Origin: Zanthoxylum bungeanum
Taxonomy: Eukaryota; Streptophyta; Magnoliopsida; Sapindales; Rutaceae
DNA length: 64,000 nucleotides
Assembly: GCA_019454045.1 (NCBI GenBank)
Contig: SKCR01037659.1
Coordinates: forward strand, 1-64,000
Direction of reading: 5' to 3'
The notes below the pieces were generated by a model. The model was not told the origin of the DNA and did not search any database. It saw only the letters and a program-made list of their open reading frames with translations. The translations under genes and the position numbers were made by a program. Positions 20,900 to 64,000 of the stretch are shown piece by piece; the stretch's first letter is position 1, and every line of letters starts with the position of its first letter.

Positions 20900-20904
20900 T
20901 TCAC

Positions 20905-22943
20905 TGTTGGAGTTTCTAGGTCCATAGGATCGAATACAAGCAATGAAATAATTGCGAATACAAATCGAGAAAGTCACGGAATACTTACATCGAGCGGTTG
21001 AGCGACGCGGAGGCAACAAAAATGAAGTTTCTGCCCACTGGTTTCACGCCCACTGCAGCAGTTCACCTCACTGTTATACGCCATTTTGGTCTCCTTCATC
21101 AAGCTCCAAGCTTCGTCGAATGGTTCTCGGCTCATGGGTGAGCTTCCCTATCACATTCGCATGTCTCTCGGAGTGCTAGCTCTCTAGAAATTTGCCACAA
21201 ATCTCACTGCACTTGCTTCCCATGCTCACGGTTTTTGTGAGAAAACTAGTGAACATTTCAGCCCTCCATGGGCGTGAATGAGGAGAGAAAATGGAGAAGG
21301 AGAGAGAGAGATAAAAGTGTGTAAAATGAATTGGAAAAAATGGTAAATGATTTCCAAAACCTATACCAAATTTTTCCCTCCAAAAACAAAGCATTAAATG
21401 CCAACCACACACATCAACTTGCCATCAATCCATCACTCAGTGAATAGTGACTGGCATCAATCACTCAAAGTGAAAGACATCCATCACTTGATTGACGACT
21501 GATGTGACGTTAGAAGCGACTAGCGATTTGACGCTTGATTTGATTTGCCACACTCGAATTCGAAATGCGAATGCGCTCGCAAATAATCTTGGGCTCGGGT
21601 TCGCTAATTCTAAATTAAAGAATTTTCCGTTGTGACGCAATTAAATGATTACGCCTAGCGAAGTCACTATTCACGTCGCTAACGAATTAATTCGTTCACC
21701 CGAATTAAAATCTAATTTTAATTCCGCGTCGAAATCCAATTTTGTTTAATATATCAAACATATTAATTTACCGATTAATTTCAAATTATTCGTTCTCTCT
21801 CTTTAAATGATATTTTATCCCAGATAAAATATCTCCGCAATTAATCCCAGATTAATTTTTTCTCTCATCTAATTAATCCCAGATTAATTAAAAGTGCGAG
21901 TCATACGTCATCGGTGAATCTTTGGGAAGCGACCCATGAGATCCCCGGATATGTTGGCAGTAAATTCGGTCGTCGGACTATCCGAACACGTAAGTACCTC
22001 GTACTACGTTTATACCGAATTACAAGACAAGGTTGGCTTCTAGCAAAGCGCCATGCCTCCCCAATTCTCCGGAAATATCCTTACAGGAATAATGATCTAT
22101 ATCAAGCGTAATATACCGTAGTATTGCGTATTTCTGTCCAGTATCGGATGATCACATGCAAGGCCTAGGGATGGTACAGTGTCTGCCTCTTACGATGCAT
22201 ATATCGGATAACGAGCAACTAGTCTCTTTAGAATCGAGTAATCATGACCAAGTCATATTATCCCGACGGTTGCAACCTTTATAGAGAACTAGTTTTGTAT
22301 CCCTGCGCGATCATCAACTCCATATGACTGGAGTGACACTTACATCTTAACATCGCACCCAACACACTACGATTCTCGATATACCCAGAATTGGCTTACA
22401 CAGGAACCGGTTAAAGCCCTGGACTACCTCAACCAAAGTATATTGATTGTCGTATGCATTAGCGGTGCAAGTCTCAGGTTAAGACCAAATACACCTACCC
22501 TGATTTCGGACTTCCATAGACACGTAGTCATACTACCAATGGAATTCCGAGGGGGTCTATCCAGAGCGAAGCTGTTTCCCATACCATCGGTGAAACACAA
22601 CCTTCTATTACACTTGCATGAGTATCTTATACCCAAATATATGAGAACTATGCCGTTGTGCCCTCACAATGCGCACAAGTGTAATACTAGTCTTTTACGC
22701 ATTCATCGATGTCCAATCTCGATAATGCTCTGACTAGGGACGTTTAATGATTTATCCTTCGTGGACTGATACTGTCTCATATCGTTCTCTGTCCAGGAGC
22801 AAATCATAGGGACCTCTCATCATTTATACATCTAGGTGATCTAATCACAAATGATAAGAGTGCAATCTCCTTTGTCACATAGTTAATTTGTACAACAACA
22901 CAATGATCTGTACAAATAATGACGCTATGGGAATTGTCCAACA
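20905..22943 (-). repeat. 3' LTR of the nested copia-type element
   Basis: TGTTGGAGTT...TCCAACA, highly similar to 28720-30771 and 49733-51742 along its length. No gene is seen in it. Confidence 0.95.
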
Positions 22944-22956
22944 ATCTCCCACTTGG
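22944..22956 (-). other. Polypurine tract
   Basis: The plus strand atctcccacttgg is the complement of CCAAGTGGGAGAT, purine-rich and directly against the LTR. The same tract follows the LTR at 51742. Confidence 0.8.
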
Positions 22957-23720
22957 CCTATAGCCAGTCACTCGAGTGCTTGACACCCGAACTATGTACG
23001 GTTGGCTCAAATTGCTGTGAAAGGACTTTCGTCTGCGGATTTGCATGATTATTGTCTGATGCGATTTATTCGATCATCACATCCCCACGATGTATGATCC
23101 GAACGAATCAGATGAATATCGAAGTATGTATCTGGATCGTTGATGAGACCATTAATTCTTTAGCATGTGCTGACGCCTAGCTCAGCTGCTAACAGAACTA
23201 TTCCTAATCCAATTGGGATTTATTATCGACCCAGAAGGCTTCTATTGCCGCTTCAGCTGCAGCAATAACCCGCATTTGTTGTTTATACGGTAACAGTATC
23301 TTGCTTGGAAGATTTCCAGCTTACTTTATCGTTATTCAAACTGTATAGTGCCGTTTGCGACTTTCAGTCATCTTTATCGGTTAGGAAACTTGCAACAGTG
23401 ATCCCAGTCACTTCAAGTTCTCCATCTCTATAGTTTAAGACAGCATCCTTAGTTCTCCAAGATACTAACGGATGTTCTTAACATTAATCCAGTGACTATC
23501 ACTCGGATTGGCCTGTTTGTGAATCATATGCTCAAAGCGTATGAGACACCAGGTCGCATACATTTTTCAATGTACGATTCCACGGAGAGTTTTCTCGAAA
23601 GCCAAGCTTTCACCGATTATTTATTGGGAATATCATTACCAAGAAATTACATGGTTTATCATTATTTATTTAGGACATTTATTGTCAGTGCGCTCCCACT
23701 AACCTCCTTATATACACAAG
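22957..23720 (-). pseudogene. Copia RT end / RNase H relic
   Basis: Minus-strand reading with many stops still shows the family pattern: MRPGVSYALS, then SHW-like and VTGIT...SFLTDKDD, and further on AAEAAIEAFWVD. These correspond to TRPDVSYALS, the YTDASF...KDD segment and AASEAAKEAVW of plant copia RNase H. One TGA, directly after ALSI, is shared with the copy at 51743-53165, while other lesions differ. The ancestor was therefore already broken when the family spread. Confidence 0.75.
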
Positions 23721-25810
23721 AATCATTTCGTTTTGAATTAAATCATACTTCATTATGATTACATCAAAACGATAATTCCAAGAACCTATGCTTGCTACAA
23801 TTCAAACATGGATCGAATAACTCGCAAACCTTGTTTGCTAGTTTTGATACTACAAAACCGACATGATGTTATAAACATCCTCCAAAAGGTTTCCTTTTCA
23901 GGAAAGTGATTTTCCCGTAAAGCTGACATATTTCATAAATGAAACATGCAGCATTAGCAAGCTTTATCCAAATGGATTTACCAGGGCAACAGTTAAAAGG
24001 TTGAATCGAAATCAACATAATGTTGATAACGATACCTTTCCGCTAAAAGCCTAGCTTTATACGTTGGTATGTTGCCATCCATGTACGTCTTCCTTGTAGA
24101 CTTATATAGTACCAATAGGCACAATGCCTTGCGGTACAACAACTAGTATCCAAACATAGTTGATATACATGGAATCCATTTCGGACTCATTACACTTTGT
24201 CATAATAGGGAGTCGATACCTTGTATCACTACCTCATGTGTAGTCAGTTGGTATACCTCAAAAGATTTACATCTTTACGAGGTGAGATCAGAAACTCATA
24301 CCCCAGGTTTGTTTTATGACTCTCTTCGATTACACGGTTCTTGTATATATTCAAAGATTATGGTATAGTTACATCCTTGATGAACTATTTGTGTTCCATT
24401 AGGATCTATGCCTGGAATAGTGTTACTCTGATTTTCATCGAGTTTCACTATCCTCCCACTTACCACTGCATATCGGTATTCCTCTTAGGAAAACCACATG
24501 GTGAGCAACAATATAATTGTTCTCATGTGAGATGTATAAGTACAATACTTATGGTATCCTTAGGATAACCTACAATTGGCACTTATCCAATTTGGGTTCT
24601 AGTTTGGTATCATCCAAACATATGCCCAGCATACCCAAATATTCAGGAATGAGAAACCTGGTTTCTTTCCTGTTCATATCTAATATGATATCTGTAAAAT
24701 AGATATTAATGGAACCTTATTCTAAATAAGTTATTGCACTGTTAATGCTTATCTGTTGAAGGAAATGGTAGCTCAGAGCGACTCATGATTAGCTTTATCA
24801 TGTCTAACACAATTCGGTTAATCCGTTCGGACACACCGTCAGAATGACGTGTTCCGGGAGGAGTCCTCATTTGAAAGAATACTATACTCTTTCAAGTATA
24901 TTAGAAACTTATTTCTTAAGTATTTTTCCATTACGATCTTACCGTGACGGTATAATACTTTAGCCGATCTGTTTGTCTATTTCGTGTCGAAACTTAAAAG
25001 TTTCCGATTTGTGTTTCAAAAGAGACACATAACCATTACGCGATGCCACATCCGTAAAGGTCACGAAACATCATATCCACATCTAGCCTAGCTAGACATG
25101 GGTCCACTTGCTTCACTATGAACTATGGCTAACAGATCAGTGGCATTTACACTTTTACCAAGTAAATAGTGTTACATGCACTTTGCCCAATAAACTAGAT
25201 TCATAGACTTTATTTGAATAGAATCAAATTAGTCCGAGTACCCACTCTTCAAAAGTGCGGATATACGATTCTTGTTTATTGTGTCCCAGACTACAATGCC
25301 ACAATTAGTTTCATCTGATCAAATCAGTTGAGCTATTTATTTGTCATGTTATATATTCGAGATTTATTTATATTCAAAATATAAATGCCGTTATTCAAAT
25401 CTAATGTGTGTTATCTCAATATCATCTTATATAATAAAACACTTTAGTGTTCTAGAATATAAAGGTTCACCCGCAGCGGGTTAAACACTGATATAGAGAT
25501 ATGTATCTAGTCAAACTAATACATTATAACAGATTCCAAATTTAGGTACACACCCAAGGGTAGTTCCTAAACTTATATATCTACGGTTAAAACAGCGACT
25601 TTCGTCCCATTTCCAATTCGCAGACAAATCTCTATTAGAGTCAGTATCTGTGCAAAACAGATTCTAAACATCAATATATATTTATATCACACTAAGTATC
25701 TAAAATCCAATTTTAATACTACTAGTGAATATATTTATGACAAATATGTATTCGAAGTCAGAGCCTTGCCCGTCTTCTATTCCTTCATGTATGCTATGTC
25801 CAACCGGCAG
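23721..25810 (-). pseudogene. Unreadable copia pol relic
   Basis: By position this should hold RT, integrase and protease. I can see short copia-like strings but no continuous domain. ORFs of 60-90 codons on either strand are not family-like. Non-coding in practice. Confidence 0.5.
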
Positions 25811-28719: not shown

Positions 28720-30771
28720 TGTTGGGGTTTCTAGGTCCATAGGATCGAATACAAGCAATGAAATAATTGCGAATAAAAATCGAGAAAGTCGCGGAATACT
28801 TACATCGAGCGGTTGAGCGACGCAGAGGCAACAAAAATGAAGTTTCTGCCCACTGGTTTCACGCCCACTGCAGCAGTTCACCTCACTATTTTGTGCCATT
28901 TTGGTCTCTTTCTTCAAGCTCCAAGCTTCGTCGAATGGTTCCCGGCTCACGGGTGAGCTTCCCTATCACATTCGCATGTCTCTCGGAGGGCTAGCTCTCT
29001 AGAAATTTGCCACAAATCTCACTGCACTTGCTTCCCATGCTCACGGTTTTTGTGAGAAAACCAGTGAACATTTCAGCCCTCCATTGGCGTGAATGAGGAG
29101 AGAAAATGGAGAAGGAGAGAGAGAGACATAAAAGTGTGTAAAATGCATTTGAAAAAATGGTAAATGATTTCCAAAACCTATACCAAATTTTTCCCTCCAA
29201 AAACAAAGCATTAAATGCCAACCACACACATCAACTTGCCATCAATCCATCACTCAGTGAATAGTGACTGGCGTCAATCACTCAAAGTGAAAGACATCCA
29301 TCACTTGATTGACGACTGATGTGACGCTAGAAGCGACTAGCGATTTGACGCTTGATTTGATTTGCCACACTCGAATTTGAAATGCAAATGCGCTCGCAAA
29401 TAATCTCGGGCTCGGGTTCGCTAATTCTAAATTAACGAATTTTCTGTTGTGACGCAATTAAATGATTACGCCTAGCGAAGTCACTATTCACGTCGCTAAC
29501 GAATTAATTCTAAATTAATTCGTTCGCCCGAATTAAAATCTAATTTTAATTCCGCGTCAAAATCCAATTTCGTTTAATATATCAAATATATTAATTTAAC
29601 GATTAATTCCAAATTAATCGTTCTCTCTCTTAAATATATTTTATCCCAGATAAAATATCTCCACAATTAATCCCACATTAATTTTCGCTCTCATCTAATT
29701 AATCCCAGATTAATTAAAAGTGCGAGTCATACGTCATCGGTGAATCTTTGGGAAGCGACCCATGAGATCCCCGGATATGTTGGCAGTAAATTCGATCGTC
29801 GGATTATCCGAACACGTTAGTACCTCGTACTACGTTTATACCGAATTACAAGACAAGGTTGGCTTCTAGCAAAGCGCCATGCCTCCCCAATTCTCCGGAA
29901 ATATCCTAACATGAATAAGGATCTATATCAAGCGTAGTATATCGTAGTATTGCGTATTTCTGTCCAGTATCGGATGATCACATGCAAGGCCTGGGGCTGG
30001 TACAGTGTCTGCCCCGTACGATGCATATATCGGATAACGAGCAACTAGTCTCTTTAAAATCGAATAATCATGACCAAGTCATATTATCCCGACGGTTGCA
30101 ACCTTTATAGAGAACCAGTTCTGTATCCCTGCGCGATCATCAACTTCATATGACTGGAGTGACACTTCCATCTTGACATCACACCCAACACACTACGATT
30201 CTCGATATACCAGAATTGGCGTACACAGGAACCGGTTAAAGCCATGGACGACCTCAACCGAAGTATATTGATTGTTGTATGCATTAGCGGTGCAAGTCTC
30301 AGGTTAAGACCAAAACACCTACCCTGATTTCGGACTTCCATAGACACGTAGTCATACTACCAATGGAATTCCGAGGGGGTCTATCCAGAGCGAAGCTGTT
30401 TCCCGTACCATCGGTGAAACACAACCTCCTATTACACTTGCATGAGTAACCTATACCCAAATATTTGAGAACTATGTCGTTGTGCCCTCACAACGCGCAC
30501 AAGTGTAATACTAGTCTTTTACGCATTCATCGATGTCCAATCTCGATAATGCTTTGACTAGGGACGTTTTATGATTTATCCTTCGTGGACTGATACTGTC
30601 TCATATCATTATCTGTCCAGGAACAAATCATAGGGACCTCTCATCATTTATACATCTAGGTGATCTAATCACAAATGATAAGAGTGCAATCTCCTTTGTC
30701 ACATAGTTAATTTGTACATCAACACAATGATCTGTACAAATAGTGACGCTATGGGTCATAATTGTCCAACA
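28720..30771 (-). repeat. 5' LTR of the nested copia-type element
   Basis: 2052 bp, TGTTGGGGTT...TCCAACA, followed by TSD ttaac. Compared with 20905-22943 it has scattered substitutions and short indels such as the extra 'tctaaattaattcg' near 29508. Confidence 0.95.
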
Positions 30772-49732: not shown

Positions 49733-51742
49733 TGTTGGTTTCTATTAAGGTCCCAAGATCAATAATAAGCATGAATCAAGTACGAATACACATTGAAGAA
49801 GTTGCGGAATACTTACATCGAGCGGTTGAGCGACGCGGAGGCAACAAAAAATTTAGATTATGCCTCTCCACTGGTTCGACAGTGAGCTAAAACAACTCAC
49901 TGGTTTAGCCTCTGTTTGGGTCTTTCGTCAAGCTTCAAGCTTCGTCGAACGATTCCCGGCTCATGGGTGGACTTCCATATCACCTTCGCATGTCTCGTAA
50001 GTGTGCTAGCACTTGTGATTTTGCCATAAAATCACACTATTGGCTTCCCACTCTCTCGGTTTTTGCTGAACAGAAAACCAGAAAGTTTGCCCCTTTGGGC
50101 GTGAAGAGAGAAAGAGAATGGAGAGAGAGAGTTATGTTTGGTTTGTCAAATTTGTGTATTAAATACACACATTTGAATTTCAAATGCATTTCACTTGAAT
50201 TTGGCTTTTAAAAGTCAAACCATTAAAGCCCCAACCACTCACATCACTCAATCCATCAAGTTGTCAAGTCACATCACTCAAAGTGACTTGTGATTTGACG
50301 TTTGACGCGACTAGCGATTTGACGCTTAATTTGACGTGCCGCACTCGAATTCGAAATGTGAATGCGCTCGTAAATAATCTTGGGCTCGGGTTCGCTAATT
50401 CCAAATTAACGAATTTTCCGTTGCGTCGTAATTAAATGATTACGCCTAGCGAAATCACTATTCACATCACTAACGAATTAATTTTAAATTAATTCGTTCG
50501 GCCGAATTAAAATCTAATTTTAATTCCGCGTCGAAATCTAATTTCGTTTAATATATCAAATATATTAATTAATCGATTAATTCCAAATTAATCATTATCT
50601 CTCTTTTAATGATATTTTATCCCAGATAAAATATCTCTGCAATTAATCCCAGATTAATTTTCTCTCTCTTCTAATTAATCCCAGATTAATATAGAGTGCG
50701 AGTCATACGTCATCGGTGAATCTTTGGGAAGCGGCCCATGAGATCCCCGGATATGTTGGCAGTAAATTCGGTCGTCGGACTATCCGAACACGTAAGTACC
50801 TCGTAGTACGTTTTACCGATTTACAAGACAAGGTTGGCCTCTAGCAAAGCGCCATGCCTACCCAATTCTCCGGAAATATCCTTACAGGAATAAAGGATCT
50901 ATATCAGGCGTAGTATACGTAGTATTGCGTATTTCTGTCCAGTATCGAATGATCACGTGCTAGGCCTAGGGCTGGAATTGTGTCTGCCCCGTATGAAGCA
51001 CATGTCGGATGTCTGGTGACTAGTCTCTATAATCGGATAAACATGACCTTGTCATTTTATCCCGATAGCTGCAGCATTTAAGAGAACCAGTCCTGTATCC
51101 TACGTGACCATCATCTCCATATGACTGGAGTGACACTTCCATCTTGACATCACACCCAACACACTACGATTCTCAATATACCCAGTATTGGCGTACACAG
51201 AACCTGTTAAAGCCCTGGACGACCGCAACCAAAGTATATTGATTGTCGCAAGTATTAGCGGTGCAAGTCTCAGGTTAAGACCAAATACACCTACCCTGAT
51301 TTCGGACTTCCATAGACACATAGTCATACTACCAATGGAATTTCGAGGGGGTCTATCCAGAGCGAAGCTGTTTCCCGTACCATCGGTGAAACACAACCTC
51401 CTATTACACTTGCATGAGTATCCTATACCCAAATATATGAGAACTATGTCATTGTACCCTCACAACGCGCACAAGTGTAATACTAGTCTTTTACGTATTT
51501 ATCGATGTCCAATCTCGATAATACTCTGACTAGGATATTTAATGATTTATCCTTCGTAGACTGATACTGTCTCATATCATTCTCCGTCCAGGAACAAATC
51601 ATAGGGACCTCTCATCATTTATACATCTAGGTGATCTAATCACAAATGATAAGAGTGCAATCTCCTTTGTCACATAATTAATTTGTACAACAACACCATG
51701 ATCTGTATAAATAGTGATGTTATGGGTCATAATTGTCCAACA
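49733..51742 (-). repeat. 3' LTR of the truncated copy
   Basis: 2010 bp, clearly homologous throughout to 20905-22943 but more different from it than those two LTRs are from each other, mainly in 49750-50280. Confidence 0.93.
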
Positions 51743-53165
51743 ATCTCCCACTTGGCCTATAGCCAGTCACTCGAGTGCTTGACACCCGAACTATGTACGG
51801 TTGGCTCAAACTGCTGAGAAAAGCTTTCGTCAGCGGATTTGCATGATTATCATCTAATGCGATTTATTCGATCATCACATCGCCACGATGTATGATCCGA
51901 ACGAATCAGATGAATATCGAAGTATGTATCTGGATCGTTGATGAGACCATTAATTCTTTAGCCTGTGCTCAAGCTTAGCTAAGCTGCTAACAGAATTATA
52001 TCTAATCTAATTAGATTTATTATCGACCCAGAAGGCTTCTATTACCGCCTCAACTGCCAGCAATAACCCGCATTTGTTATTTATTCGGTAGCAGTATCTT
52101 GCTTGGAAGATTTCCAGCTCACTGTTCCGTTATTCAAACTTTGTAGTACCGTTTGCGACTTATAGTCATTTTATCGGTTTAGGAAACTTGCAATAGTGAT
52201 CCCAGTCACTTCAAGTTCTCCTTCTCCTCAGATTAAGACAGCATCATTAGTTCTCTAAGATACTAACGGATGTTCTTAACATCAATCCAGTGACTATCAC
52301 TTGGATTGGCCTGTTTGTGACTTCATATGCTCAAAGCGTATGAGACACCAGGTCGCGTATATTTTTCAATGTACGATTTCTCGGAGAGTATTCGAAAGCC
52401 AAGCTTTCGCCGATAGTTTATATGGGAATATTATTTCCAAGAAATGACATATTATCATTATTTATAGGACAATCACTGTCAGTGCGCTCCCACTAACCTC
52501 CTTATATACACAAGAATCATTTTCGTTTTAAAATAAAATCATAAACCATTATGATTACATCAAAACGATAATTCCAAGAACCTATGCTTGCTTCAATCCA
52601 AACATGGATCGAGTAACCTGCACACCTTGTTTGCTTGTTATGGTACGACAAAACCGTCAGGATGTTGTAAACATCCTCCAAAAGGTTTCCTTTTCAGGAA
52701 AGCGATTTTCCTGTTAAGCTGTCATATTTCATAAATGAAACATGCAGCAATAGCAAGCATTATCCAAATGGATATACCATGGCAACAGGTAAAAGGTTGA
52801 ATCGTAATCAACACAATGTTGATAACGATATCTTTCCGCTAAAAGCCTAGCTTTATACGTTGGTATGTTGCCTTCCATGTATGTCTTCCTTGAAGACTTA
52901 TATAGTACCAATAGGCACAATGCCTTGCGGTAAAACAACTAGTGTCCAAACATAGTTGATATACATGGAATCCATTTTGGATTATATGGCACTTTGCCAT
53001 AATAGGGAGTCGATACCTTGTATCACTTCCTCATACGTAGTCAGTTGGTATACCTCAAAAGATAGACATCTTTATGAGGTGAGATCAGAAACCCATACCC
53101 CAGGTTATTTTCTGACTCTCTCCGACATACGCGGTTCTTGTGTATATGAAGATTAATGGTATAGT
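49733..53165 (-). mobile_element. Truncated second copy of the 20905-30771 family
   Basis: LTR 49733-51742 (TGTTGG...TCCAACA), PPT atctcccacttgg, and 1.4 kb of the same decayed internal region as 22957-24370. It stops at 53165, where the Athila-like element is inserted: gtatagtta in both copies, then divergence. The rest of the element must lie beyond the window. Remains of RNase H are visible as in the other copy, with at least one shared stop. Confidence 0.88.
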
Positions 53166-53790
53166 TAATGAGCGGAAAATATATCAATATTTACCGCCCC
53201 TTTTACTTAATATTTTTTTTAGTTTCTCGGGTTTGATTAACGTTTTGATATGTTTTAGTTTATTTTGCACATAAAATAATATTGGGACTTAATGAAATCA
53301 TTTAGGACGAAATATGGGTCAAATAAGGGCAAAAATTGGACTTGACATATTAATTTTGGAGATTGGAAACTTGAAAGGGCGTTTTAACGAAGTGCAGTTT
53401 TGGAAATTCCAGTTTTGTGCATCTGTCGTATTTTGGGCAGAACTTCTTACTCCGGTATTGGATTGAGCTGATTCAAGTTCCAGATTAAAGAAGACTCAAA
53501 GATATACAGCTTTGAAAGACAAAATAATTTCGAATTCTGAATATTTCATGCCCGAAATTGATGAACCATCCAGAAGTGTGTTGTGTGTAATTATTAAAGT
53601 CACTTTCAATCATTTTCAAAGCAAAAAAATAAATTAATAAATAAATAATAAAAATTATCAAATCATCAACAAACATGATAAGAGATTAGTGGAGCAATTA
53701 ATAATGGATTTGGTGGAGCAATTAGTGGAGCAATTAGTGGAGCAATTAATAATTGATTTGGTGGATGATTTGATGGAGGCAAAATTTTAC

Positions 53791-53800
53791 CTATAAATAC
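53791..53800 (+). promoter_or_regulatory. LTR TATA box
   Basis: ctataaatac sits mid-LTR and is repeated at 63596-63605 in the 3' LTR. It is the probable U3 promoter driving the element, with transcription starting some 30 bases downstream. Confidence 0.7.
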
Positions 53801-53984
53801 CAAGTCATGAATTTGTAAAATTCATACTTTCTTCTAATGAATTCCTTAAGAATACTAAGAAGATTGTATCTTGTTTGTTTATTTACAGCTTTCAGTAATT
53901 AATTTCCGCTTTCTCACTTTCTTTTCTTTACTTTTCTGTTTTTACTTTCCGCAATTTACTTTTACGCACAGTACTTTTCTTTCT

Positions 53985-54130
53985 TTATTTTTCAGTTTTT
54001 ACTTTTCAGTAATTTACTTTCAGCAATTTACTTTTCAGCAATTTACTTTTCGGCAATTTACTTTCAGCAATTTACTTTTCAGCAATTTACCTTCAGCAAT
54101 TTACTTTCAGTAATTTACTTTCAGCATTTA
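53985..54130. repeat. Short tandem repeat of caatttactttcag type
   Basis: About ten 14-16-bp units (caatttacttt(t)cag) run in tandem. Copy number differs in the 3' LTR at 63820-63900. Confidence 0.92.
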
Positions 54131-54982
54131 ATTTTCAGTATTTAATTTCAGCATTTACTTTTCAGCATTTACTTTTCATTATTTAATTTTCAGTATTTTA
54201 CTTTATGTCTTTTATTTTATTTAAGTTTTTTTACTACCCGTAAATATGTGTCGTAACTAAGCCAAGTTATATGGGGTTGTGATGAAATCCAATATCACCG
54301 GTTTATAAGGGGTTAGATTATAGCTTGGGTAATATAAAGATTTATTTATTGAGTCTTAATCTTAATGCTTTTTCATTAACTGACCATTAATAAAATTGAA
54401 CTGGGAAACTTAAAATGAACTAGACATAGGGATTTTAAGTTTAAGACATTAGACTCAATAGTCCACGATCTTCCTTGGGGATAGATAACCCTTTAATAGA
54501 TTTCCTTACAGGATAGACATATACCTGTCGGGCGGGGGTAGCCATAATTGGAACTTAAACTTAATGAATCCAGATAATTTGGTTGACATACACATATGGT
54601 TCAATTGGGTTAAACAGGGTATTTGTGTCTTGACCATCGACATAGGCTTACACATAATTTAGTGTTCCAGGTTAATAAATCAATATATTACCCAACTTTA
54701 AGATAACCACTTCATCTTTAAAATGATATTGGAAGAAATCACAACCCTAGATAGTTTTTAATATTGAATTTTCTTAAATCTACTTTCGAACAATTTTATT
54801 TATTTTTTTTTAGAATCGTCACCATTTCAAATCAATCCAACAACCTGTTAGATACTAGTAATCATTTGACCTCATAAAATTAATAGATTAGATATTAAGT
54901 CCTCATGGGATCGATATTTTTATACTACTTGAACGATACGTGCGCTTGTGTTATACGCGTGTGTAAGCACCGGTCAAGTTTT

Positions 54983-55000
54983 TGGCGCTGTTGTCGGGGA
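54983..55000 (+). other. Primer binding site (TGGCGC type)
   Basis: tggcgctgttgtcgggga, two changes from the TGGCGCCGTTGCCGGGGA site of Athila-type elements. Confidence 0.92.
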
Positions 55001-55067
55001 CTTATTTATCTTTCACTATTAGTTTTGAGGTTAGATACGTTACTTGTATCTAATTTCTTTTTACTTA

Positions 55068-55092
55068 TTGTTTTTGTTTTCTTGTGTTTCAG
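55068..55092 (+). promoter_or_regulatory. Possible splice acceptor before gag
   Basis: A long pyrimidine-rich run ends ttgtgtttcag with the first gag ATG (55108) 16 bases downstream. This is inferred only from sequence. Similar acceptors precede the Cys-rich ORF and LOG. Confidence 0.4.
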
Positions 55093-55107
55093 GTTCTCAG
55101 AAACTAC

Positions 55108-56505
55108 ATGAGACGAACCAGAAGCTTTGAACTCCGACCGCTTGACCCAGAAATTGAAAGAACCATCAGACAGTTGAGAAGGGAAAGGCGAGAAGGCCAA
55201 GAAGCAATCATTAACATGGAACCTGAACCGTTGGAGGTTGCACCACCAATTCCCATTCGAGACAGAACCATTCTGGTGGTTGACAGACTCATTTCCTGTA
55301 TTGTACTTCCTCTCTTACCAGCAAATGCGTGTGACATCAAAACACGCATTCAGATGATTCAGCAATCAGTTCATTTCGGGGGGAATGCAACTGAAGATCC
55401 TAATACCCACATCAGTAACTTCCTGGAAGTTTGTGGCACTTTCAACTACAACAGAGCATCAAAAGAAGCAATAAGACTGCGAGTTTTTCCATATTCCCTG
55501 AAAGACAGAGCTAAAGCTTGGCTACATTCACTACCAGCAGGTTCTATCACAACTTGGAACACTTTAGCCACCAAATTTCTTGCAAAGTACTTTCCACCAG
55601 CCAGAACTGCAAAGTTGAGGAATGACATCACATCCTTCGTGCAACAAGATTCAGAATCCATTTTCGAAGCTTGGGAAAGATTCAAAGATTTACTCCGGAA
55701 ATGTCCTCATCATGAGATCACAAAATGGCTTCAAGTCCAAACATTCTATAATGGACTTTCTGGAATAATGAGAACCACAATCGATGCTGCTGCTGGAGGA
55801 GCTTTAATGGCAAAAGGAGAAGATCAAGCCTGGGACCTAATCGAAGAAATGGCCAACAACAATTCCTTGTGGCCAACAGAAAGGAGCATGATCCAAAGAA
55901 TTGCAGGAATTTAAGAAAGTGGAGCCAATACAGCAGTCAACGCCAAGCTAGATCAGATATGCAAATTCATGGAGACTCTTACCACTGGATCCACAATTTC
56001 ACCATATGGAGGAGCACCAGAGTCGAACCAACTTGAAGAGACTGTGAATTATGTCAACAATTTCAACAGACAGAGGAACAATCCATATTCCAACACCTAC
56101 AACCCAGGGTGGAGGAATCATCCCAATTTTTCATGGAGCAACAATTCAGGCCAACAGTAGAACTATCCACCATCTGAATTCCAGCAACAGAACAAAAGCC
56201 AGGAGCATGCAAATGAACCAGGAATAACAGAAGTGTTGACCCACTTGAAAAAGATAGAAGCAAAACACGACTCTCAAGCAGCAAGATATGATACTATGTT
56301 TCAATCTCAAGCAGCAAGATATGATGCTATGTTTCAATCCCAAACAACATTAATTCAAAGTCAATCTGCTTCTATTAAAGCACTCGAGAATCAAATTGGA
56401 CAACTGGCAAATGCTCAGAGTTACAGACCACCAAGTACCCTTCCTAGCAACACAGAGCCAAATCCAAGGAACATGGGAAGGAACAATGTCATGCCATCAT
56501 GTTAA
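55108..56505 (+). pseudogene. Athila-type gag with two in-frame stops
   Basis: Starts at ATG 55108 (MRRTRSFELRP), since upstream in-frame codons have no ATG. The capsid domain shows HFGGNATEDPNTHISNFLEV, LRVFPYSLKDRAKAWLHSLP, ITTWNTLATKFLAKYFPPA and RKCPHHEITKWLQVQTFYNG, all Athila hallmarks. A TAA at 55912 and a TAG at 56158 interrupt it. The frame then continues to 56505 with a coiled-coil-like tail containing a 33-bp duplication (SQAARYDTMFQ / SQAARYDAMFQ). It would build the virus-like particle. Apart from the two stops the reading frame is open, suggesting relatively recent inactivation. Confidence 0.93.
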
Positions 56506-57440
56506 AAAGCGGTACTGAAATCAACAAAGATTTTGGAGCCAAAACAACTGCTGAGGAAGTTCCAAAAGAAACAAAGCAACAGATGGAGGAAAAAGAAGCA
56601 AAGGAAAAAGAACAGATCATTCCACCTCCATCTTTTCCTCAACGTCTTCAGAAGAACAAATTGAACAAGCAGTTTTCTCGGTTCCTGGAAATCTTGAAAA
56701 AGCTGCATATCAACATTCCATTTGCAGAAGCGTTGGAACAAATACCCAGCTATGCCAAATTCATGAAAGACATTCTTTCACGAAAGCGGAGATTGGGAGA
56801 TTACGAGATAGTAGCATTATCAGAAGAATGCATCGCTATCATTCAGAGGAAACTTCCCCCAAAGTTGAAAGATCCTGGCAGTTTCACTGTTCCTTCCACC
56901 ATAGGAGAACATGACTTCGGTAAGGCTCTGTGTCATCTAGGTGCGAGTGTTAACTTGTGCCTTTTTCTATTTTCAGGAAATTACAGATTGGAGAAAAAAT
57001 GTCAACTTCAGTCTCACTACAACTTGCTGATAGAACGCTCGTATTTCCAAGAGGCGTAGTTGAGGATGTGCTGGTCAAGGTTGACAAATTCATTTTCCCA
57101 GTAGATTTTATTGTCCTTGATATGGAGGAAGACGCAGACGTGCCAATCATCCTCGGGAGACCATTCTTGGCTACAGGTCGAACCATTATTGATGTACAAA
57201 AAGGAGAACTAACCATGAGGGTACAAGACCAAGAAGTAACATTCAATTTTTTCAAAGCCATGAATTTCCCAGATGATGAAAAGAAGGAGGAATGTTTCAG
57301 ACTTGATGTGATACATAGTACCGTTCAGAACTCTGATGAAAGACAAAGTTCTACTGACAAACTTAAAGCATGTCAATTACCTGTGGAGCCTGAAGATAAA
57401 GCACACTGCGTACTGAAGAAGCCTATTCTTGCACTACAAG
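56499..57440 (+). pseudogene. Athila-type protease, frameshifted, active-site Asp lost
   Basis: 56499-57059 reads through FPQRLQKNKLNKQFSRFLEI, KKLHINIPFAEALEQIPSYA and KDPGSFTVPSTIGEHDFGKA to CHLGASVN. Athila proteases have CDLGAS here, so the catalytic Asp is now His (codon CAT at 56934-56936). About 20 bases later a frameshift moves the reading to the frame starting near 56957, with SIFRKLQIGEK, VEDVLVKVDKFIFPVDFIVL and DVPIILGRPFLATGRTIIDV up to KAMNFPDDEKKEE. The RT expected next is missing. The sequence goes over to integrase C-terminal codons around 57440 through a short linker. Confidence 0.9.
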
Positions 57441-57806
57441 AAACAGAAGAGAAAAAGTTCCACCAGCTCAACGAATTGGAGGAATTTCACAATCAGCCTT
57501 TTGAGGATGCCAAATTGTACAAAGAAAAGGGCAAGAAAAGACATGATGAGAAGTTAGTGCGCATACAACTGGAACCAGGGCAGAAGGTACTGTTAAACAA
57601 ATCAAGGGGAAATTCTTCCCACGGAAGCTAAAATCACGGTGGTCAGGTCCATTTGTGATCACCAAGGTTTTACCAGACAGAGCCGTTGAGATACATGATC
57701 CTGACTCCAACAAAACTTTCAAGGTTAAAAACAAGTGTGTTAAGCACTACTGGGGAGAATCATTTGAGCTACAAAAAGAAAGTGTTACACTTTCAGATTC
57801 AGCTTA
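57441..57806 (+). pseudogene. Integrase C-terminal remnant of the Athila-like element
   Basis: FHQLNELEEFHNQPFEDAKL, then EKGKKRHDEKL and LEPGQKVLL are the usual residues after the integrase core. A frameshift at about 57600 leads to LKSRWSGPFVITKVLPDRAV and the pol end with a stop at 57804-57806. Joined to the protease without RT, RNase H or the integrase core, it marks a large internal deletion. The gggaggcaaccca motif that follows (57856) is typical after Athila pol. Confidence 0.88.
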
Positions 57807-57897
57807 ACGATCGAGAAGTCAAGTCTGGCTGACAACTCTAAACTTAGCGCTAGCAGGGAGGCAACCCATGCAATTTTTGAATATATTGTGATCTTGT

Positions 57898-58380
57898 ATG
57901 TTTTATTTTTGTCTGTTTAATTTTTGCAGGTTTAGTCATTTCAAGAAGGAAGAAACTCTCGCAAATCTTCGCAAGCAATTTCCTTCCCTCCCTAAAAAAT
58001 CTCTGATGAAAGTTTACAAAGCTCACTTAGAACGGATGAGGTTACTGATGATCAAAGGTATTCCTACTGACATTCGTTGGTTAATTGAAGCACGGGTCCG
58101 ATTGGCAGGTGAGTCTTCTGACTCTTTTATTTCACATCTGCCTGGTTTAGGAAAGAGCACATATGCTAAAAAGAGAAGAGCCAAAAGAATGTGTGTTTGT
58201 TATAAATGTGCTCGTATGTTTTGTAATACTCGTTGTCGTTCTTTAGGAATGGTGTCTGATAACCGCGAAAATAAGATTAATTTCATTAGGGATGGCTTGA
58301 GTAGGGAGTCTTTGGATGACATATCTAAAACTCTTGAGATGCATCCTAGTGGATGTATGAAATTCGCATGTTATATGTGA
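57898..58380 (+). pseudogene. Cys-rich accessory ORF, C-terminus replaced by a solo LTR
   Basis: I do not recognise a described family. The 160-codon frame starts at ATG 57898. If the acceptor ttttgcag at 57929 is used, the first Met would be residue 37 (58006). Visible features are a basic helix-like N-terminal half (KKEETLANLRKQFPSLPKKS), a basic patch KKRRAKR at residues 91-97, a cysteine cluster at 99, 101, 104, 109 and 113 (C-x-C-x2-C-x4-C-x3-C), and FIRDGLSRESLDDI at 129-142. Its stop codon is the first three bases of the inserted LTR; before insertion it ran nine more codons (60641-60667) to a TAA at 60668-60670. It sits where Athila elements often carry an env-like third ORF, but shows no signal peptide or membrane segment. 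Confidence 0.65.
57915..57929 (+). promoter_or_regulatory. Possible splice acceptor before the Cys-rich ORF
   Basis: ctgtttaatttttgcag is a good plant 3' splice site in form. A subgenomic spliced mRNA would be needed to express an ORF this far downstream of gag. Inference only. Confidence 0.4.
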
Positions 58381-58589
58381 TGAGTGATATTTATATCACT
58401 ATTTCCCACTCATTTAATCTAATATTTTGTATAGTTTCTTGAGTTTTGTGAATGTTTTGATGTGTTTTGTGTTATTTTGCAGATAAATAAAGTTTGGACA
58501 GCACTGGAGGCAATTTTGGGCAAAACCGGACAAAAATGCGTCAATAGGGATATTTTCGTCTTTTGCGCGTCGCGCCGCCCAGACCTTCC

Positions 58590-59183
58590 GCGTCGCGACG
58601 CCCAGCGTGAGCCGAATCTGCTAACGTGCGCCTGGTCAACTGATCAGGATTGGAGAAGTTTGACTTTGCTAAAATGCGCCGTGCCACGTGTCACCATCAC
58701 AACGAATCTGCTAACGTGCGCCGTGCCACGTGTCAACATCATATGCTGCCGACACTTTGACTTGACACGTGTCGCCTTGTCATCAGCCATGTCAGCGGTC
58801 AACGAGTCAACATGCCATGTGTCATGCCACGTCATCAGCCACGTCACAAGGTCAACCAAGTCAACTTGACACCTCAGCATCAGCCAATCACCGCGTGACA
58901 CGTGTCGCCACGTGTCGCAATCCTATTGTGCCGACAATTGCAACACACGCCACCACACGCCAACACACGCCAGCGCCACGTCATCGCCACATCAGCGCCA
59001 CGTCATCGCCACATCAGCATGACGTCATCAATGACGTCATCACAATAATTGAGTCTTAGCCGCCTTGACACGTGTCGCGTGAACAGTCAGCCGCCATGCC
59101 ACGTGTCGCCTTCTCAGCGTGCCACGTCGACAAACAGTGACAAATCCAGCGTCGCGACGCTGAGGTCCTTGGCGTCGCGACGC
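58590..59183 (+). promoter_or_regulatory. Dense ACGT-core (G-box/ABRE, C-box) cluster in the LTR U3
   Basis: CACGTG occurs seven times (58685, 58727, 58766, 58898, 58908, 59068, 59100), mostly as cacgtgtc. TGACGTCA occurs at 59020-59027 and 59032-59039, and there are further ccacgtca copies. Three perfect 12-bp palindromes gcgtcgcgacgc are at 58590, 59149 and 59172. These are binding cores of plant bZIP (ABF/TGA/HY5) and bHLH (PIF) factors. The cluster ends just before a TATA box at 59202. Confidence 0.85.
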
Positions 59184-59201
59184 TGGAACAGTGAAAAATA
59201 T

Positions 59202-59211
59202 TCTATAAATA
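59202..59211 (+). promoter_or_regulatory. TATA box of the solo LTR
   Basis: tctataaata, followed 25-60 bases later by pyrimidine-rich ctctctctc, the usual context of a plant LTR start site. Transcripts would run toward the LOG ORF 1.8 kb downstream. Confidence 0.65.
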
Positions 59212-60640
59212 CTGCGCGAATTTCAGAATTTTAATATACCTCTCTCTCTCTGATTTCTCTCTCTAGAGAGAGTTTCTCTCTCTAGAATTTTTATTTTTAT
59301 TTTTAGTTTTTTTTAATTTATTTATTTGTAATTTATTTTAATTACCATTTGTAATAATAGTAATTTAATTTTTACTTTTTACTTTTTACAGTTTTTACTA
59401 TTCATGAGAAAGTAATTTCCCAGCTATGGTGAAAGGTAATTCTTTTACTGTTACTATTTAGATTAATCTCCCTTAAAAATAATATATTTACACTTTAAAA
59501 TACTGATTAATAAAGGATACCGCTATATTGGTCGGTTGGTATATTTATTTTCTGTTGGTTTGAACCTGATTAATCAAGGATACCGCCAGATTGGTCGGTT
59601 GATAAATTTATTTTGGTACCGCCTTTATGGCTGGATTATGGATAAATATTACCGCCTATATGGCTGGTTGGACTTAATTGGACTTAATCAGGATACCGCC
59701 AGATTGGTCGATTGGTTAAATAATATCACAAGTTTATATATTATTTTATGGGAGATATCTAAATTAGTAGTAGTAAAAGTAATTCATTTTACCTTAGCAT
59801 TTTATTTTATTGCAATTTACTTTTCAGTATTTACTTTTCAGCATTTTTACTTTATGTCTTTTATTTTTCAGTTATTAGTCCTAATTATGTGTCATAACTA
59901 AATAGTTATCTGGGGTTGTAATGAATTTCAATATCACCGGTTTATAAGGGTTAGATTATAGTTTGGGTAATATAATGATTTATTTATTGAGTCTTAATCT
60001 TAATGCTTTTTATTAACCGATCACTAATAAAATTGATTAGGTAAACTTAAAATGAACTAGACATAGAGATTTTAAGTTTAAAACCTTAGACTCAATAGCC
60101 CACGATCTTCCTTGAGGATAGATAACCCTTTAATAGATTTCCTTACAGGATAGGAATATACCTGTCGGGCGAGGGTAGCCATAATTGGAACTTAATCTTA
60201 ATGAATCCAGATAATGTGGTTGACATAGGAATATGGTTCAATTGGGTTATACTGGGTATTTGTGTCTGACCATCGACAGATGCTTTCGCATAATTTCGTG
60301 TCCCAGGTTAATAAATCATTGTATTTCCTAACTATATAATAATCACTTCATCTTTATAATGATATTGGAATAAATCACAACCCTAGATCTTTGTGTCGTT
60401 TGTTATTTTCCTTAGTATTTTCTTTTGTCTTTTTATTTATTTATTTATTTTGCAAAGCCACATTCAACCAAACAAACAAACAATCTCTCTCATCTCCATT
60501 TAATTAGATATTTATAAATAAATAGATTCAACAATTAATAACAACAGTAGGAATTAAGTCCTCGTGGGATCGATATTTTTATACTACTTGAACGATACGT
60601 GCGCTTGCGTTATACGTGTGTGTTTACGCCGGTCAATATG

Positions 60641-60670
60641 CACAATTCCAAAAGGAAAGACAACTATTAA
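60641..60670 (+). pseudogene. Displaced 3' end of the Cys-rich ORF
   Basis: Nine codons and a TAA in the frame that was contiguous with 57898-58377 before the solo LTR came in. The TSD copy at 60636-60640 separates it from the LTR. Confidence 0.65.
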
Positions 60671-61021
60671 GTCTCGGGAATCTGACTCAAAAAGACCCTG
60701 TTTGCCAATTTATAAGAAAATTGGATGGGAAGCTTGTCCCTGACGCATAGACGTCAATCAAGCCGTTACTTTTCTTGTAAATATTATATCTCTTTGTCTT
60801 TTCCTAATAATTGTAATTTGTTTTGTTGTTTTTCTTTTTATTTTCTCCGACATGATCCAGACCTTTTTGACTACCATGATTTATTTTACTGTTTAACTAA
60901 TAATTGTCATTTGGAAGGTACTAGTGCTATTATTTTACTCACCATTTTTCAGTAACTATAAATTCAGCCCGTCATTGCACTTTTGAAGACATACAGAGTT
61001 GAGAAAGAAATACATAAAAAA
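60671..61021 (+). other. Upstream region of LOG
   Basis: Non-coding and AT-rich. The part 60720-60770 resembles sequence seen after Athila pol genes. 60925-60952 is a pyrimidine-rich run ending tttttcag, a possible splice acceptor. An in-frame TAA at 60959-60961 means LOG is not an exon continuation from the element's earlier ORFs. Confidence 0.55.
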
Positions 61022-61675
61022 ATGGAAGCCACTTCAAGAAGACGAGTTGAAAACATCTGTATGTTTTGCGGTAGTAGTGTTGGTGTTAAGCCACAATACG
61101 TAGAAGCAGCACAAGAATTGGGTCGAGTCTTAGCTGCAAGAAATATGCACTTAATATATGGCGGAGGCAATCTTGGACTAATGGGGATCGTTTCAAAGGC
61201 TGTACAGGAAGGAGGCAGTCACGTTTTGGGAATCATCCCAAAACCCTTGGCAGAAGCAAATCTTATTGGATCATCAAACGGAGATGAACTGATCGTACCA
61301 GGTATGTCTGAGCGACTGGTAGAAATGATTAACCGTGCTGATGCTTTTATTGCTTTGCCAGGTAGCTTAGGTACATTGGAGGAAATTTTTATTGTGCTAT
61401 CTTGGGCGAACCTGAACATACACCAGAAACCAATTGGGCTGTTTAACGTTGATGGATTTTATGATTTTGTTTGTGTATTTCTTGATGATGCCCGGATAAA
61501 TGGGTTCGTGTCAAAACCTTTGAAAGAACGACTCTTTACTGCCAGAACTGCTCCGGATCTAATAGACCAACTCTTAGCCTATGAACCACAAGTTGACCCT
61601 ATCCTTTCAAAGATAAATTGGTCTGAGGACGATCGTGGTAAGAGGCGTCGTGTTAATCTGGATCTTAACCTTTAA
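61022..61675 (+). CDS. LOG-type cytokinin riboside 5'-monophosphate phosphoribohydrolase, intronless
   Basis: 217 residues, the usual LOG length. LOG enzymes release active cytokinin bases from their riboside monophosphates in cytosol and nucleus. The Rossmann-type fold is clear: ENICMFCGSSVG (10-21), HLIYGGGNLGLMG (43-55), GGSHVLGIIPK (64-74), SERLVEM with Arg98, then ALPGSLGTLEE (111-121) and NIHQKPIGLFNVDGFYDF (132-149). The signature PGGxGTxxE has Ser115 in place of the second Gly; the acidic Glu121 and Arg98 are kept. The C-terminus is GKRRR followed by LDLNL (213-217). The start is the first ATG (61022, aaaaaATGG); frames upstream have no ATG. Plant LOG genes normally have several introns; this one has none, as expected of a reverse-transcribed copy. 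It lies between an ORF and the PPT of an LTR element. Resembles the LOG10/LOGL10 subgroup. Confidence 0.92.
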   Translation: MEATSRRRVENICMFCGSSVGVKPQYVEAAQELGRVLAARNMHLIYGGGNLGLMGIVSKAVQEGGSHVLGIIPKPLAEANLIGSSNGDELIVPGMSERLVEMINRADAFIALPGSLGTLEEIFIVLSWANLNIHQKPIGLFNVDGFYDFVCVFLDDARINGFVSKPLKERLFTARTAPDLIDQLLAYEPQVDPILSKINWSEDDRGKRRRVNLDLNL

Positions 61676-62203
61676 TTTCTTGTTAAATTTTAGCTAACCA
61701 GGTACTACCTTCTAAACTCTTCTTCTACTGTTTAAGACATTGGGGACAATGTCTCATTTAGGTTTGGGGGAGGGAATTAGTTGATCAGTACCTTGTTTTT
61801 AGTTTGTGTGTTATTTTGATTTTTTAGTCTAAAATTTTTCGAAAAATACAAAAAAATTTGAAAATTTTCAAAAATTACAAAAATATTTTGCGTTTTTGTT
61901 TTTATTTTGACTAAAAATGTGAAATTGGTAAAAGATAGCTGAGTAAGGAGTTTCCACTCCTGAGACGTATCTCAAGCCTATTTTCGAAATAAGCTAATTT
62001 TTGTTTATTTCCTTTTAAATTATTTAATTTGTAAATTCTCCATAAAACGGACTAAAATGGATTTTCATATGCTCAGTTGACAGGTATTATCAACATGCAT
62101 AGTAACATACGGACATGAACTAAAATTGAAAAGTTTGTAATATTCAGTGCTCTAGTTTGATTAGAGGAATCATCTAAAAAAGTAATGGAGTAAAAAAAAA
62201 CAT

Positions 62204-62433
62204 CTGAGATCCGAGTTATTAAGTCTGTAAGGGTGTTTTAACACCTAGTGCCCTAAAACCAACTGGTTTGGGAGTCACTGGCCCAAAGCTCGTTACATGG
62301 ATCAAAGATGCTGCAAAAATATATATATTTGAAGTCTGAGTAATTAAGTCCGTAGGGGTGTCTTAACTCTCGGTGCCTTAAGGCCAACTGGTTTGGGAGT
62401 CACCGACCCAAAGCTCGCTACATAGATGGAAGA
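62204..62433. repeat. 125-bp tandem duplication in the 3' tail
   Basis: Two units (starting about 62204 and 62330) share gagt.attaagtc.gta.gggtgt.ttaac and aactggtttgggagtcac, ending with aaagctcg.taca. They are diverged by about one base in six, so they are old relative to the element. Confidence 0.9.
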
Positions 62434-62969
62434 TATTGTATAAAAAAAAATAGAGAAAAATCAAAGAAAAAATCAGAAAAATTATTCCATTGCTACAAAA
62501 AAATGTGAATTCTGATAAAACTTTAGGACAAAAATATTACTCTCTTATCAACTACACATGTGACTGTTGTGGGCGAAAATGAGTTGATTAAAATTTTGTC
62601 GACTGTGTATATGGAGAATGGTAAAAATAATCGGAGAATTTACTTATTCAGTAATTTAGAATGAAACAAAACAACTATTGACTTGGAGTAGAAGTTTCAC
62701 CTGATTAGTCACTAATTTCTTTTTTCTCTTGTCTTTTTACTTTTGTGTGCATTAGTTTTATTATCTTTTTACTTTTGTAAAACGTTTGTGGGTATCGTTG
62801 CTGTAAGCCCTCACGAGACTATAACTCGTCCACTAGGGACACCTAGGGGTTTAAAGGCTTGTTGCATATGCTAAATGCAACCGTGATCCCTAAGAAAGTG
62901 GCTTAGTTTAATTTTAATTGTTTCTTGTATTTTATTTTGTTGTTTTGCTCGAGGACTAGCAAAATGTTA

Positions 62970-62981
62970 GGTTTGGGGGTG
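62970..62981 (+). other. Polypurine tract of the Athila-like element
   Basis: ggtttgggggtg directly before the 3' LTR start TAATGAG. Confidence 0.88.
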
Positions 62982-64000
62982 TAATGAGCGGAAAATATAT
63001 CAATATTTACCGACCCTTTTACTTAATATTTTGTTTAGTTTCTCGGGTTTGATGAACGTTTTGATATGTTTTAGTTTATTTTGCAGATAAAATAATATTG
63101 GGACTTAATGAAATCATTTAGGACAAAATATTGGTCAAATAAGGGCAAAAATTGGACTTGACATATTAATTTTGGAGATTGGAAACTTGAAAGGGCGTTT
63201 TAACGAAGTGCAGTTTTGGAAATTCCAGTTTTGTGCATCTGTCGTATTTTGGGCAGAACTTATTACTCCGATATCGGATTGAGCTGATTCAAGTTCCAGA
63301 TTAAAGAAGACTCAAAGATCTACAGCTTTGAAAGACAAAATAATTTCGAATTCTGAATATTTCATGACCGAAATTGATGAACCATCCAGAAGTGTGTTGT
63401 GTGTAATTATTAAAATCACTTTCAATCATTTTCAAAGCAAAAAAAATAAATTAATAAATAAATAATAAAAATTATCAAATCATCACCAAACATGATAAGA
63501 GATTAGTGGAGCAATTAATAATGGATTTGGTGGAGCAATTAGTGGAGCAATTAATAATTGATTTGGTGGATGATTTGATGGAGGCAAAATTTTGCCTATA
63601 AATACCAAGCCATGAATTTGTAAAATTCATACTTTCTTCTAAGGAATTCCTTAAGAATACTAAGAAGATTGTATCTTGTTTGTTTATTTACAGCTTTCAG
63701 TAATTAATTTCCGCTTTCGCACTTTCTTTTCTTTACTTTTCAGTTTTTACTTTCCGCAATTTACTTTTACGCACAGTACTTTTCTTTCTTAATTTTCAGT
63801 TTTTACTTTTCAGTAATTTACTTTCAGCAATTTACTTTCAGCAATTTACTTTCAGCAATTTACTTTCAGCAATTTACTTTCAGTAATTTACTTTCAGCAT
63901 TTAATTTTCAGTATTTAATTTCAGTATTTTACTTTCAGCATTTACTTTTCATTATTTAATTTTCAGTATTTAATTTTCAGTATTTTACTTTATATCTTTT
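62982..64000 (+). repeat. 3' LTR of the Athila-like element, cut by the window edge
   Basis: 1019 bp aligned base for base with 53166-54200, with about 2-3 percent substitutions over the first 650 bp and one fewer copy of a 'gtggagcaatta' repeat. Contains the TATA box ctataaatac at 63596-63605. Confidence 0.95.

What the first reader, a model, noticed from the sequence alone, without database searches (positions are those of the whole stretch)
53166..64000. An LTR retrotransposon that carries an intact cytokinin-activating LOG gene
The LOG ORF lies inside the element: 5' LTR, PBS, gag, protease and integrase remnants and another ORF are upstream, and the PPT and 3' LTR are downstream. It has no introns, although plant LOG genes usually have several, so it looks like a processed host mRNA captured by the element. 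The retroviral-type genes around it have stops, frameshifts and a deleted RT, yet the 217-codon LOG is open. If the family has multiple copies, it could spread a hormone-activating enzyme through the genome. Host-gene capture by plant LTR elements is known (maize Bs1), but I know of no described LOG carrier.
Basis: partly seen in the sequence, partly recalled or inferred. Interest (0 to 1): 0.92.

Follow-up and report, generated by a model that had tools for sequence, protein, structure and literature searches.

The report
Plant retrotransposon carrying a LOG-family gene
A broken plant LTR retrotransposon carries an open, strongly diverged gene of the cytokinin-activating LOG family, and also an unexpected gene resembling a nucleic-acid-binding protein of plant RNA viruses; LOG-carrying elements have been reported before, while I found no report of the second gene in such elements in the few texts I could search.

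Summary
The anatomy is real: one plant Ty3/gypsy-type element with 5' LTR, PBS, gag, protease remnant, pol mostly gone, an open LOG-family ORF (61022-61675), PPT and a partial 3' LTR. First, 58378-60635 is a nested solo LTR with target-site duplication ATATG. Second, the 'other ORF' (57892-58380) scores above Pfam's cut-offs for the nucleic-acid-binding protein of carlavirus-type RNA viruses; the solo LTR truncates it. The novelty claim fails: a 2022 survey reports the LOG ('YgdH') domain in gypsy elements of Citrus and Populus, citing a 2011 paper. 'Recent capture of host mRNA, intact cytokinin enzyme' is doubtful: the protein is 47% identical to Arabidopsis At2g37210, has the longest end branch in the tree, and keeps the catalytic Arg/Glu but has changed three of five residues proposed to hold the cytokinin side chain, plus the second Gly of PGGxGTxxE. 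Divergence with an open frame and 40 of 49 conserved columns kept (29 of 38 without search-biased columns) indicates long purifying selection, in the host or in the element. Openness since this insertion proves nothing (neutral P 0.62-0.76). Copy number, donor gene and expression are untested: the genome search did not complete.

The parts
53166..54976 (+). 5' LTR (start uncertain by about 3 nt, ends ...CGGTCA)
   Evidence: aligned to the right LTR, 97.8% of 723 columns before the repeat tract
54983..55000 (+). primer binding site, tRNA-Asp type (assignment of the tRNA recalled)
   Evidence: exact single match, 0 in 100 shuffles
55054..55911 (+). gag, first open stretch; the frame goes on after stops at 55912 and 56158
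   Evidence: PF03732 E 5.6e-25; stop-to-stop ORFs
56448..57628 (+). end of gag and protease remnant, frameshifted (56448-57056 and 56954-57628)
   Evidence: weak RVP_2, E 0.013, below Pfam cut-off
57470..57807 (+). integrase C-terminal remnant, frameshifted; RT, RNase H and integrase core not found
   Evidence: Integrase_p58_C E 0.12 only, below cut-off; assignment by position and by eye
57892..58380 (+). ORF like the nucleic-acid-binding (cysteine-rich) protein of carlavirus-type viruses; its stop is supplied by the inserted LTR
   Evidence: PF05515 33 bits (cut-off 23), PF01623 23.7 bits (cut-off 20.9); 0 of 10 shuffled or reversed controls match either
58378..60635 (+). nested solo LTR of a related but different family
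   Evidence: similar to LTR1 (66% overall, 83% in the 3' third), PBS and PPT words absent at its ends
58373..58377 (+). target-site duplication ATATG, left of the solo LTR
60636..60640 (+). target-site duplication ATATG, right of the solo LTR
61022..61675 (+). LOG-family ORF, 217 codons plus stop
   Evidence: PF03641 E 3.2e-32; TIGR00730 157.5 bits (cut-off 96.35); model pLDDT 86.6; best Foldseek match 2a33
62970..62979 (+). polypurine tract
62982..64000 (+). 3' LTR, cut by the window end

Best explanation
A non-autonomous, Athila-like (OTA-type) Ty3/gypsy retrotransposon with two accessory genes in the env position between pol and the 3' LTR: a viral-NABP-like gene and a LOG-family gene. Shown: the anatomy, the LOG profile and catalytic pair, a confident LOG-like model, the NABP profile match, the nested solo LTR. 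Inferred: LOG entered the element lineage through RNA long before this insertion and was kept because its product helped the element. Its core probably still hydrolyses a nucleoside monophosphate, but the side-chain pocket has changed, so the substrate may no longer be a cytokinin nucleotide. It would be made from full-length or spliced element RNA, while Gag and Pol come from intact relatives. The NABP-like protein would bind RNA and might blunt silencing, as its viral relatives do (recalled). This copy is gutted and probably inactive.
Against: No second copy, donor gene or transcript was seen: the genome search did not complete (12 tries); LOG, gag and the NABP-like ORF each match only themselves in the window and had no relatives in viral contigs. 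Selection cannot be placed in the element rather than in a host gene before capture. Frame openness since insertion is expected by chance (P 0.62-0.76). K99, G115 and E124 are invariant in 38 of 38 relatives and H96 is present in 37 of 38, but the element has L, S, I and S, which fits loss of function as well as changed specificity; the excess of changes in the pocket is not significant (pocket columns are 4 of 9 changed and 6 of 40 kept, Fisher P 0.07). The cytokinin-specific NCBI equivalog NF058542 is not met (110.8 bits against a cut-off of 300). The first half of the NABP-like ORF alone has no Pfam hit, and its model is useless. RT was not found, so the Athila placement rests on PBS, PPT, gag and layout.
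Confidence: 0.6

Rival explanations
1. Recent transduction of a divergent host LOG paralogue: a plant gene that had already diverged was copied into one element, is a passenger, and has no role for the element.
For: Intronless and open; neutral survival since insertion is likely; Vicient and Casacuberta note that transduced genes are present in one or a few copies (abstract).
Against: More diverged than the two Arabidopsis LOGs in the PDB are from each other (47% and 41% against 68%); residues K99, G115 and E124, fixed in 38 of 38 relatives, are changed; LOG domains recur in gypsy elements of several species. Only two plant LOGs could be compared.
Confidence: 0.2
2. The LOG is a pseudoenzyme or decaying remnant: an old accessory gene whose substrate pocket has been lost and whose frame is open by luck.
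For: K99L, H96S, E124I and G115S; alanine changes at the AMP-binding and catalytic residues of CgLOG almost abolish activity (the text says 'these crucial residues' without listing them).
Against: 40 of 49 conserved columns kept (29 of 38 outside the search patterns), including both catalytic residues; a confident LOG-like model.
Confidence: 0.3
3. The LOG came from bacteria rather than from the plant.
For: The tree puts it next to Chloroflexota rows (weak, 33/86); identity to bacterial relatives (38-48% in the 80 loci) reaches that to plant LOG; At5g11950 scores no higher than the best bacterial rows (171 bits each).
Against: Highest bit score is to At2g37210 (193 against 171 for the best bacterium); grouping with the two Arabidopsis LOGs is not rejected (p-AU 0.27); the long branch makes the place unsure; plant origin needs no transfer.
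Confidence: 0.1
4. LOG is a host retrogene that landed in, or between, elements by chance.
For: It is intronless; three LTR copies in a row could be read as separate insertions.
Against: PBS after LTR1 and PPT before LTR3 make one element; the middle LTR has its own TSD; the only A-runs of 8 or more between LOG and the PPT lie at 62192 and 62442, over 500 nt past the stop, so there is no poly-A tail at its end.
Confidence: 0.04

Closest known systems
Ty3/gypsy elements with a YgdH (LONELY GUY family) domain in Citrus sinensis, C. clementina and Populus trichocarpa (Alvarado-Marchena et al. 2022, PMC9289625, section 12 read; citing Steinbauerova et al. 2011, not held)
   Same: LOG-family domain carried by plant gypsy-type LTR elements
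   Different: Their sequences and the position of the domain could not be compared here; the main text has 'nucleic acid binding' 0 and 'carlavirus' 0 times (supplements not seen); this copy seems to lack RT, on which their screen was anchored
Athila / OTA non-chromovirus elements (Neumann et al. 2019, PMC6317226, passages and section 3 part 4)
   Same: extra ORFs, large LTRs, tRNA-type PBS other than tRNA-Met
   Different: no Pfam ATHILA ORF-1 match in the ORFs scanned (that domain is in 16% of Athila elements per the paper); no RT to place it
Orchid gypsy elements with an AlkB m6A demethylase (PMC9289625, abstract and passages)
   Same: an extra enzyme gene kept by a gypsy element; AlkB too has relatives in RNA viruses, Betaflexiviridae among them (passage)
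   Different: different enzyme; shown active in vitro there, nothing assayed here
Maize Bs1 (recalled, no paper read)
   Same: host-gene sequence inside an LTR element
   Different: different gene
Endogenous RNA-virus sequences of plants (Chiba et al. 2011, PMC3136472, passages)
   Same: betaflexivirus-related sequence in a plant chromosome, there near a retrotransposon-like sequence in cucumber
   Different: there a replicase-like piece, here a NABP-like ORF inside the element

Membership tests
LTR retrotransposon (single element) | two LTRs, PBS after the left one, PPT before the right one | tested here: met
LTR retrotransposon (single element) | target-site duplication around the whole element | not testable with these tools
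   3' LTR runs off the window and the genome search did not complete; left junction supported by an uninterrupted second copy of the target
Athila lineage | RT/RH/INT phylogeny | not testable with these tools
   RT, RH and INT core not found in the ORFs scanned or listed
Athila lineage | tRNA-Asp-type PBS and Athila-type PPT (motifs recalled) | tested here: met
   TGGCGCTGTTGTCGGGGA and GGTTTGGGGG
Athila lineage | ATHILA ORF-1 (PF03078) | tested here: inconclusive
   absent from Pfam hits of the ORFs scanned, but only 16% of Athila elements have it
LOG (type I) cytokinin phosphoribohydrolase | LOG family fold and profile | tested here: met
LOG (type I) cytokinin phosphoribohydrolase | catalytic Arg and Glu (R99, E122 in CgLOG) | tested here: met
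   R98 and E121
LOG (type I) cytokinin phosphoribohydrolase | PGGxGTxxE motif intact | tested here: not met
   PGSLGTLEE; G115 invariant in 38 of 38 relatives
LOG (type I) cytokinin phosphoribohydrolase | prenyl pocket M, H, K, E, W (M96, H97, K100, E125, W129 in CgLOG) | tested here: not met
   M95 and W128 kept; H96S, K99L, E124I
LOG (type I) cytokinin phosphoribohydrolase | hydrolyses cytokinin nucleotides | not testable with these tools
   needs an enzyme assay
Carlavirus-type nucleic-acid-binding protein (PF05515 / PF01623) | profile match above the curated cut-off | tested here: met
   33.1 bits against 23 and 23.7 against 20.9; 0 of 10 controls
Carlavirus-type nucleic-acid-binding protein (PF05515 / PF01623) | fold | tested here: inconclusive
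   single-sequence model with pLDDT 43.7

The most novel reading that the evidence does not exclude
A plant retrotransposon lineage has assembled a two-gene module against its host: a nucleic-acid-binding (silencing-suppressor-type) gene taken from, or shared with, carlavirus-like RNA viruses, and a LOG-fold enzyme whose catalytic pair is kept but whose pocket has been re-shaped for another nucleotide.
Probability: 0.2. Interest if true: 0.85.

Novelty: new variant of a known kind. Interest (0 to 1): 0.5.

Why it matters
LOG domains in gypsy elements are on record, but the text I read offers no role for them. This copy adds a testable reading (old, selected, pocket changed) and a second accessory gene that resembles an RNA-virus protein. 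If the pair recurs in related elements, it would show plant retrotransposons recruiting virus-type functions and would make the purpose of their extra genes directly testable.

Tried and rejected
Middle LTR as a real boundary of the element: rejected (no PBS or PPT word at its ends, own TSD). Poly-A-tailed retrocopy: no poly-A at the end of LOG. Recent capture of a standard host mRNA: disfavoured by 47% identity and the long branch. Openness of LOG as proof of present selection: rejected by computation. Pocket changes as a significant cluster: not significant (P 0.07). Conserved-column count: my first figure (40 of 49) is helped by the way the relatives were fetched, since the two search patterns came from an alignment that held the element; without those columns it is 29 of 38, P 3e-4. 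Structure of the NABP-like ORF: model useless. Splice acceptors: a loose rule gives 17 acceptor-like sites in 8 kb, so nothing is claimed; sites before gag (55093) and before LOG (60953) are on the list, one I had eyed near 57929 before the NABP-like ORF is not. Relatives in viral contigs: none confirmed for LOG, the NABP-like ORF or gag (10, 5 and 4 pattern matches). Plasmid records: 168 with a LOG relative, all under 60% identity, 5 listed; phage records: no match to the NABP-like ORF. NCBIfam: no hit for the NABP-like ORF.

Literature: 12 searches were attempted. Nine failed and three answered. 'LONELY GUY' alone: 529 papers, 5 listed, none opened from it. 'LONELY GUY' with 'retrotransposon': 23 papers listed, one opened (PMC9289625: abstract, section 12, passages). 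'carlavirus' with 'retrotransposon': 14 (13 listed), two searched for passages; neither puts a NABP in a retrotransposon in the passages seen. That I found no report of the NABP-like gene in such elements rests only on these, on Neumann 2019 (0 occurrences in the main text), and on section 4 and the abstract of Vicient 2020. No supplement was seen, nor Steinbauerova 2011.
Full report
OBSERVATION. The claimed element is real and, as far as the window shows, one element. LTR1 (53166-54976) and the right LTR (62982 to beyond 64000) match at 97.8% over 723 columns before a 14-nt repeat tract (K80 0.022) and 96.2% over the 1018 columns available (K80 0.039). A tRNA-Asp-type PBS lies 6 nt after LTR1 and the PPT GGTTTGGGGG right before the 3' LTR. 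With a recalled plant rate of 1.3e-8 per site per year this gives roughly 0.9-1.5 million years, from a partial LTR. The element entered a copia-like sequence: a second copy of that sequence in the window (21500-24371, matching 50291-53167 at 90%) runs through the site without the insert. The outer target-site duplication lies beyond the window.

THE MIDDLE LTR. 58378-60635 resembles LTR1 (66% overall, 83% in the 3' third), has no PPT or PBS word at its ends, and is flanked on both sides by ATATG. It is a solo LTR of a related family that landed in this element later.

CODING CONTENT. gag is recognisable (PF03732, E 5e-25) but has in-frame stops at 55912 and 56158 and then frameshifts. Protease and integrase C-terminus are weak remnants below Pfam's cut-offs (RVP_2 E 0.013; Integrase_p58_C E 0.12); RT, RNase H and the integrase core were not found in the ORFs scanned. 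The ORF 57892-58380 matches PF05515 (Viral_NABP, 33.1 bits, cut-off 23) and PF01623 (Carla_C4, 23.7, cut-off 20.9); its second half alone also passes both, its first half alone has no hit. Nine shuffles and one reversal give no such match (0 of 10). A single-sequence structure model was useless (pLDDT 43.7). That carlavirus proteins of this type bind nucleic acid and can suppress silencing is recalled, apart from the Pfam names.

SELECTION. Of 49 columns conserved in at least 90% of 38 relatives, the element keeps 40 (P 9e-7 if each were kept with chance 0.475). The relatives were fetched with two patterns from an alignment that held the element; outside the columns these span it keeps 29 of 38 (P 3e-4). 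Neutral drift of the ORF to 47.5% identity leaves 6.4 stops on average and none in 0.2% of 1000 runs. The protein was therefore under constraint for much of its divergence, in the element or in a host gene before capture.

ACTIVITY. Seo et al. 2016 (PMC4979012, passages seen) name R99 and E122 as the proposed catalytic pair of C. glutamicum LOG and M96, H97, K100, E125 and W129 as the likely prenyl pocket. The element keeps the pair (R98, E121), M95 and W128, but has S96, L99 and I124, and S115 in place of the second Gly of PGG; the numbering differs by one, read off the motif. K99, G115 and E124 are invariant in 38 of 38 relatives and H96 in 37 of 38. The clustering of changes in the pocket is not significant (P 0.07). 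Cytokinin activation cannot be taken for granted: changed substrate and loss of function both remain open.

PRIOR ART. Alvarado-Marchena et al. 2022 (PMC9289625; section 12 read whole; passages) found the YgdH domain of the LONELY GUY family in gypsy-type LTR consensuses of Citrus sinensis and C. clementina and, without their filter, Populus trichocarpa, in line with Steinbauerova et al. 2011 (not held). LOG-carrying plant gypsy elements are thus known. I found no mention of an NABP-like gene in such elements in the texts searched; their supplements were not seen.

LIMITS. The source species was not identified. The genome search failed in 12 of 12 tries, so copy number, donor gene, dN/dS and the right flank are untested. 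No expression data were available.

Noticed in passing
   Followed up: partly
9251-11944 and 16975-19668: 2.7-kb direct repeats, 97.7% identical, each holding GGTTTGGGGG, with a gag-like ORF on the minus strand between them (15296-16045; gag-like by eye): perhaps the LTRs of another element.
   Followed up: no
12154-12961: Array of roughly 30-bp units, open in frame on both strands over much of its length.
   Followed up: no
21500-24371, 29317-30771, 50291-53167: Related copies (90-91%) of a copia-like sequence; the last is the target of the LOG element (copia RT read by eye from ORF 20425-20973, minus).
   Followed up: partly
62192-62441: Two tandem 125-bp copies (77%) between LOG and the PPT.
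   Followed up: no
61658-61672: LOG ends in LDLNL, an LxLxL (EAR-like, recalled) motif after a basic KRRR; could well be chance, and not tested.
   Followed up: no
58600-59150: G+C-rich stretch with repeated CCACGTGTC-like words in the solo LTR, unlike the 5' LTR (by eye).
   Followed up: no
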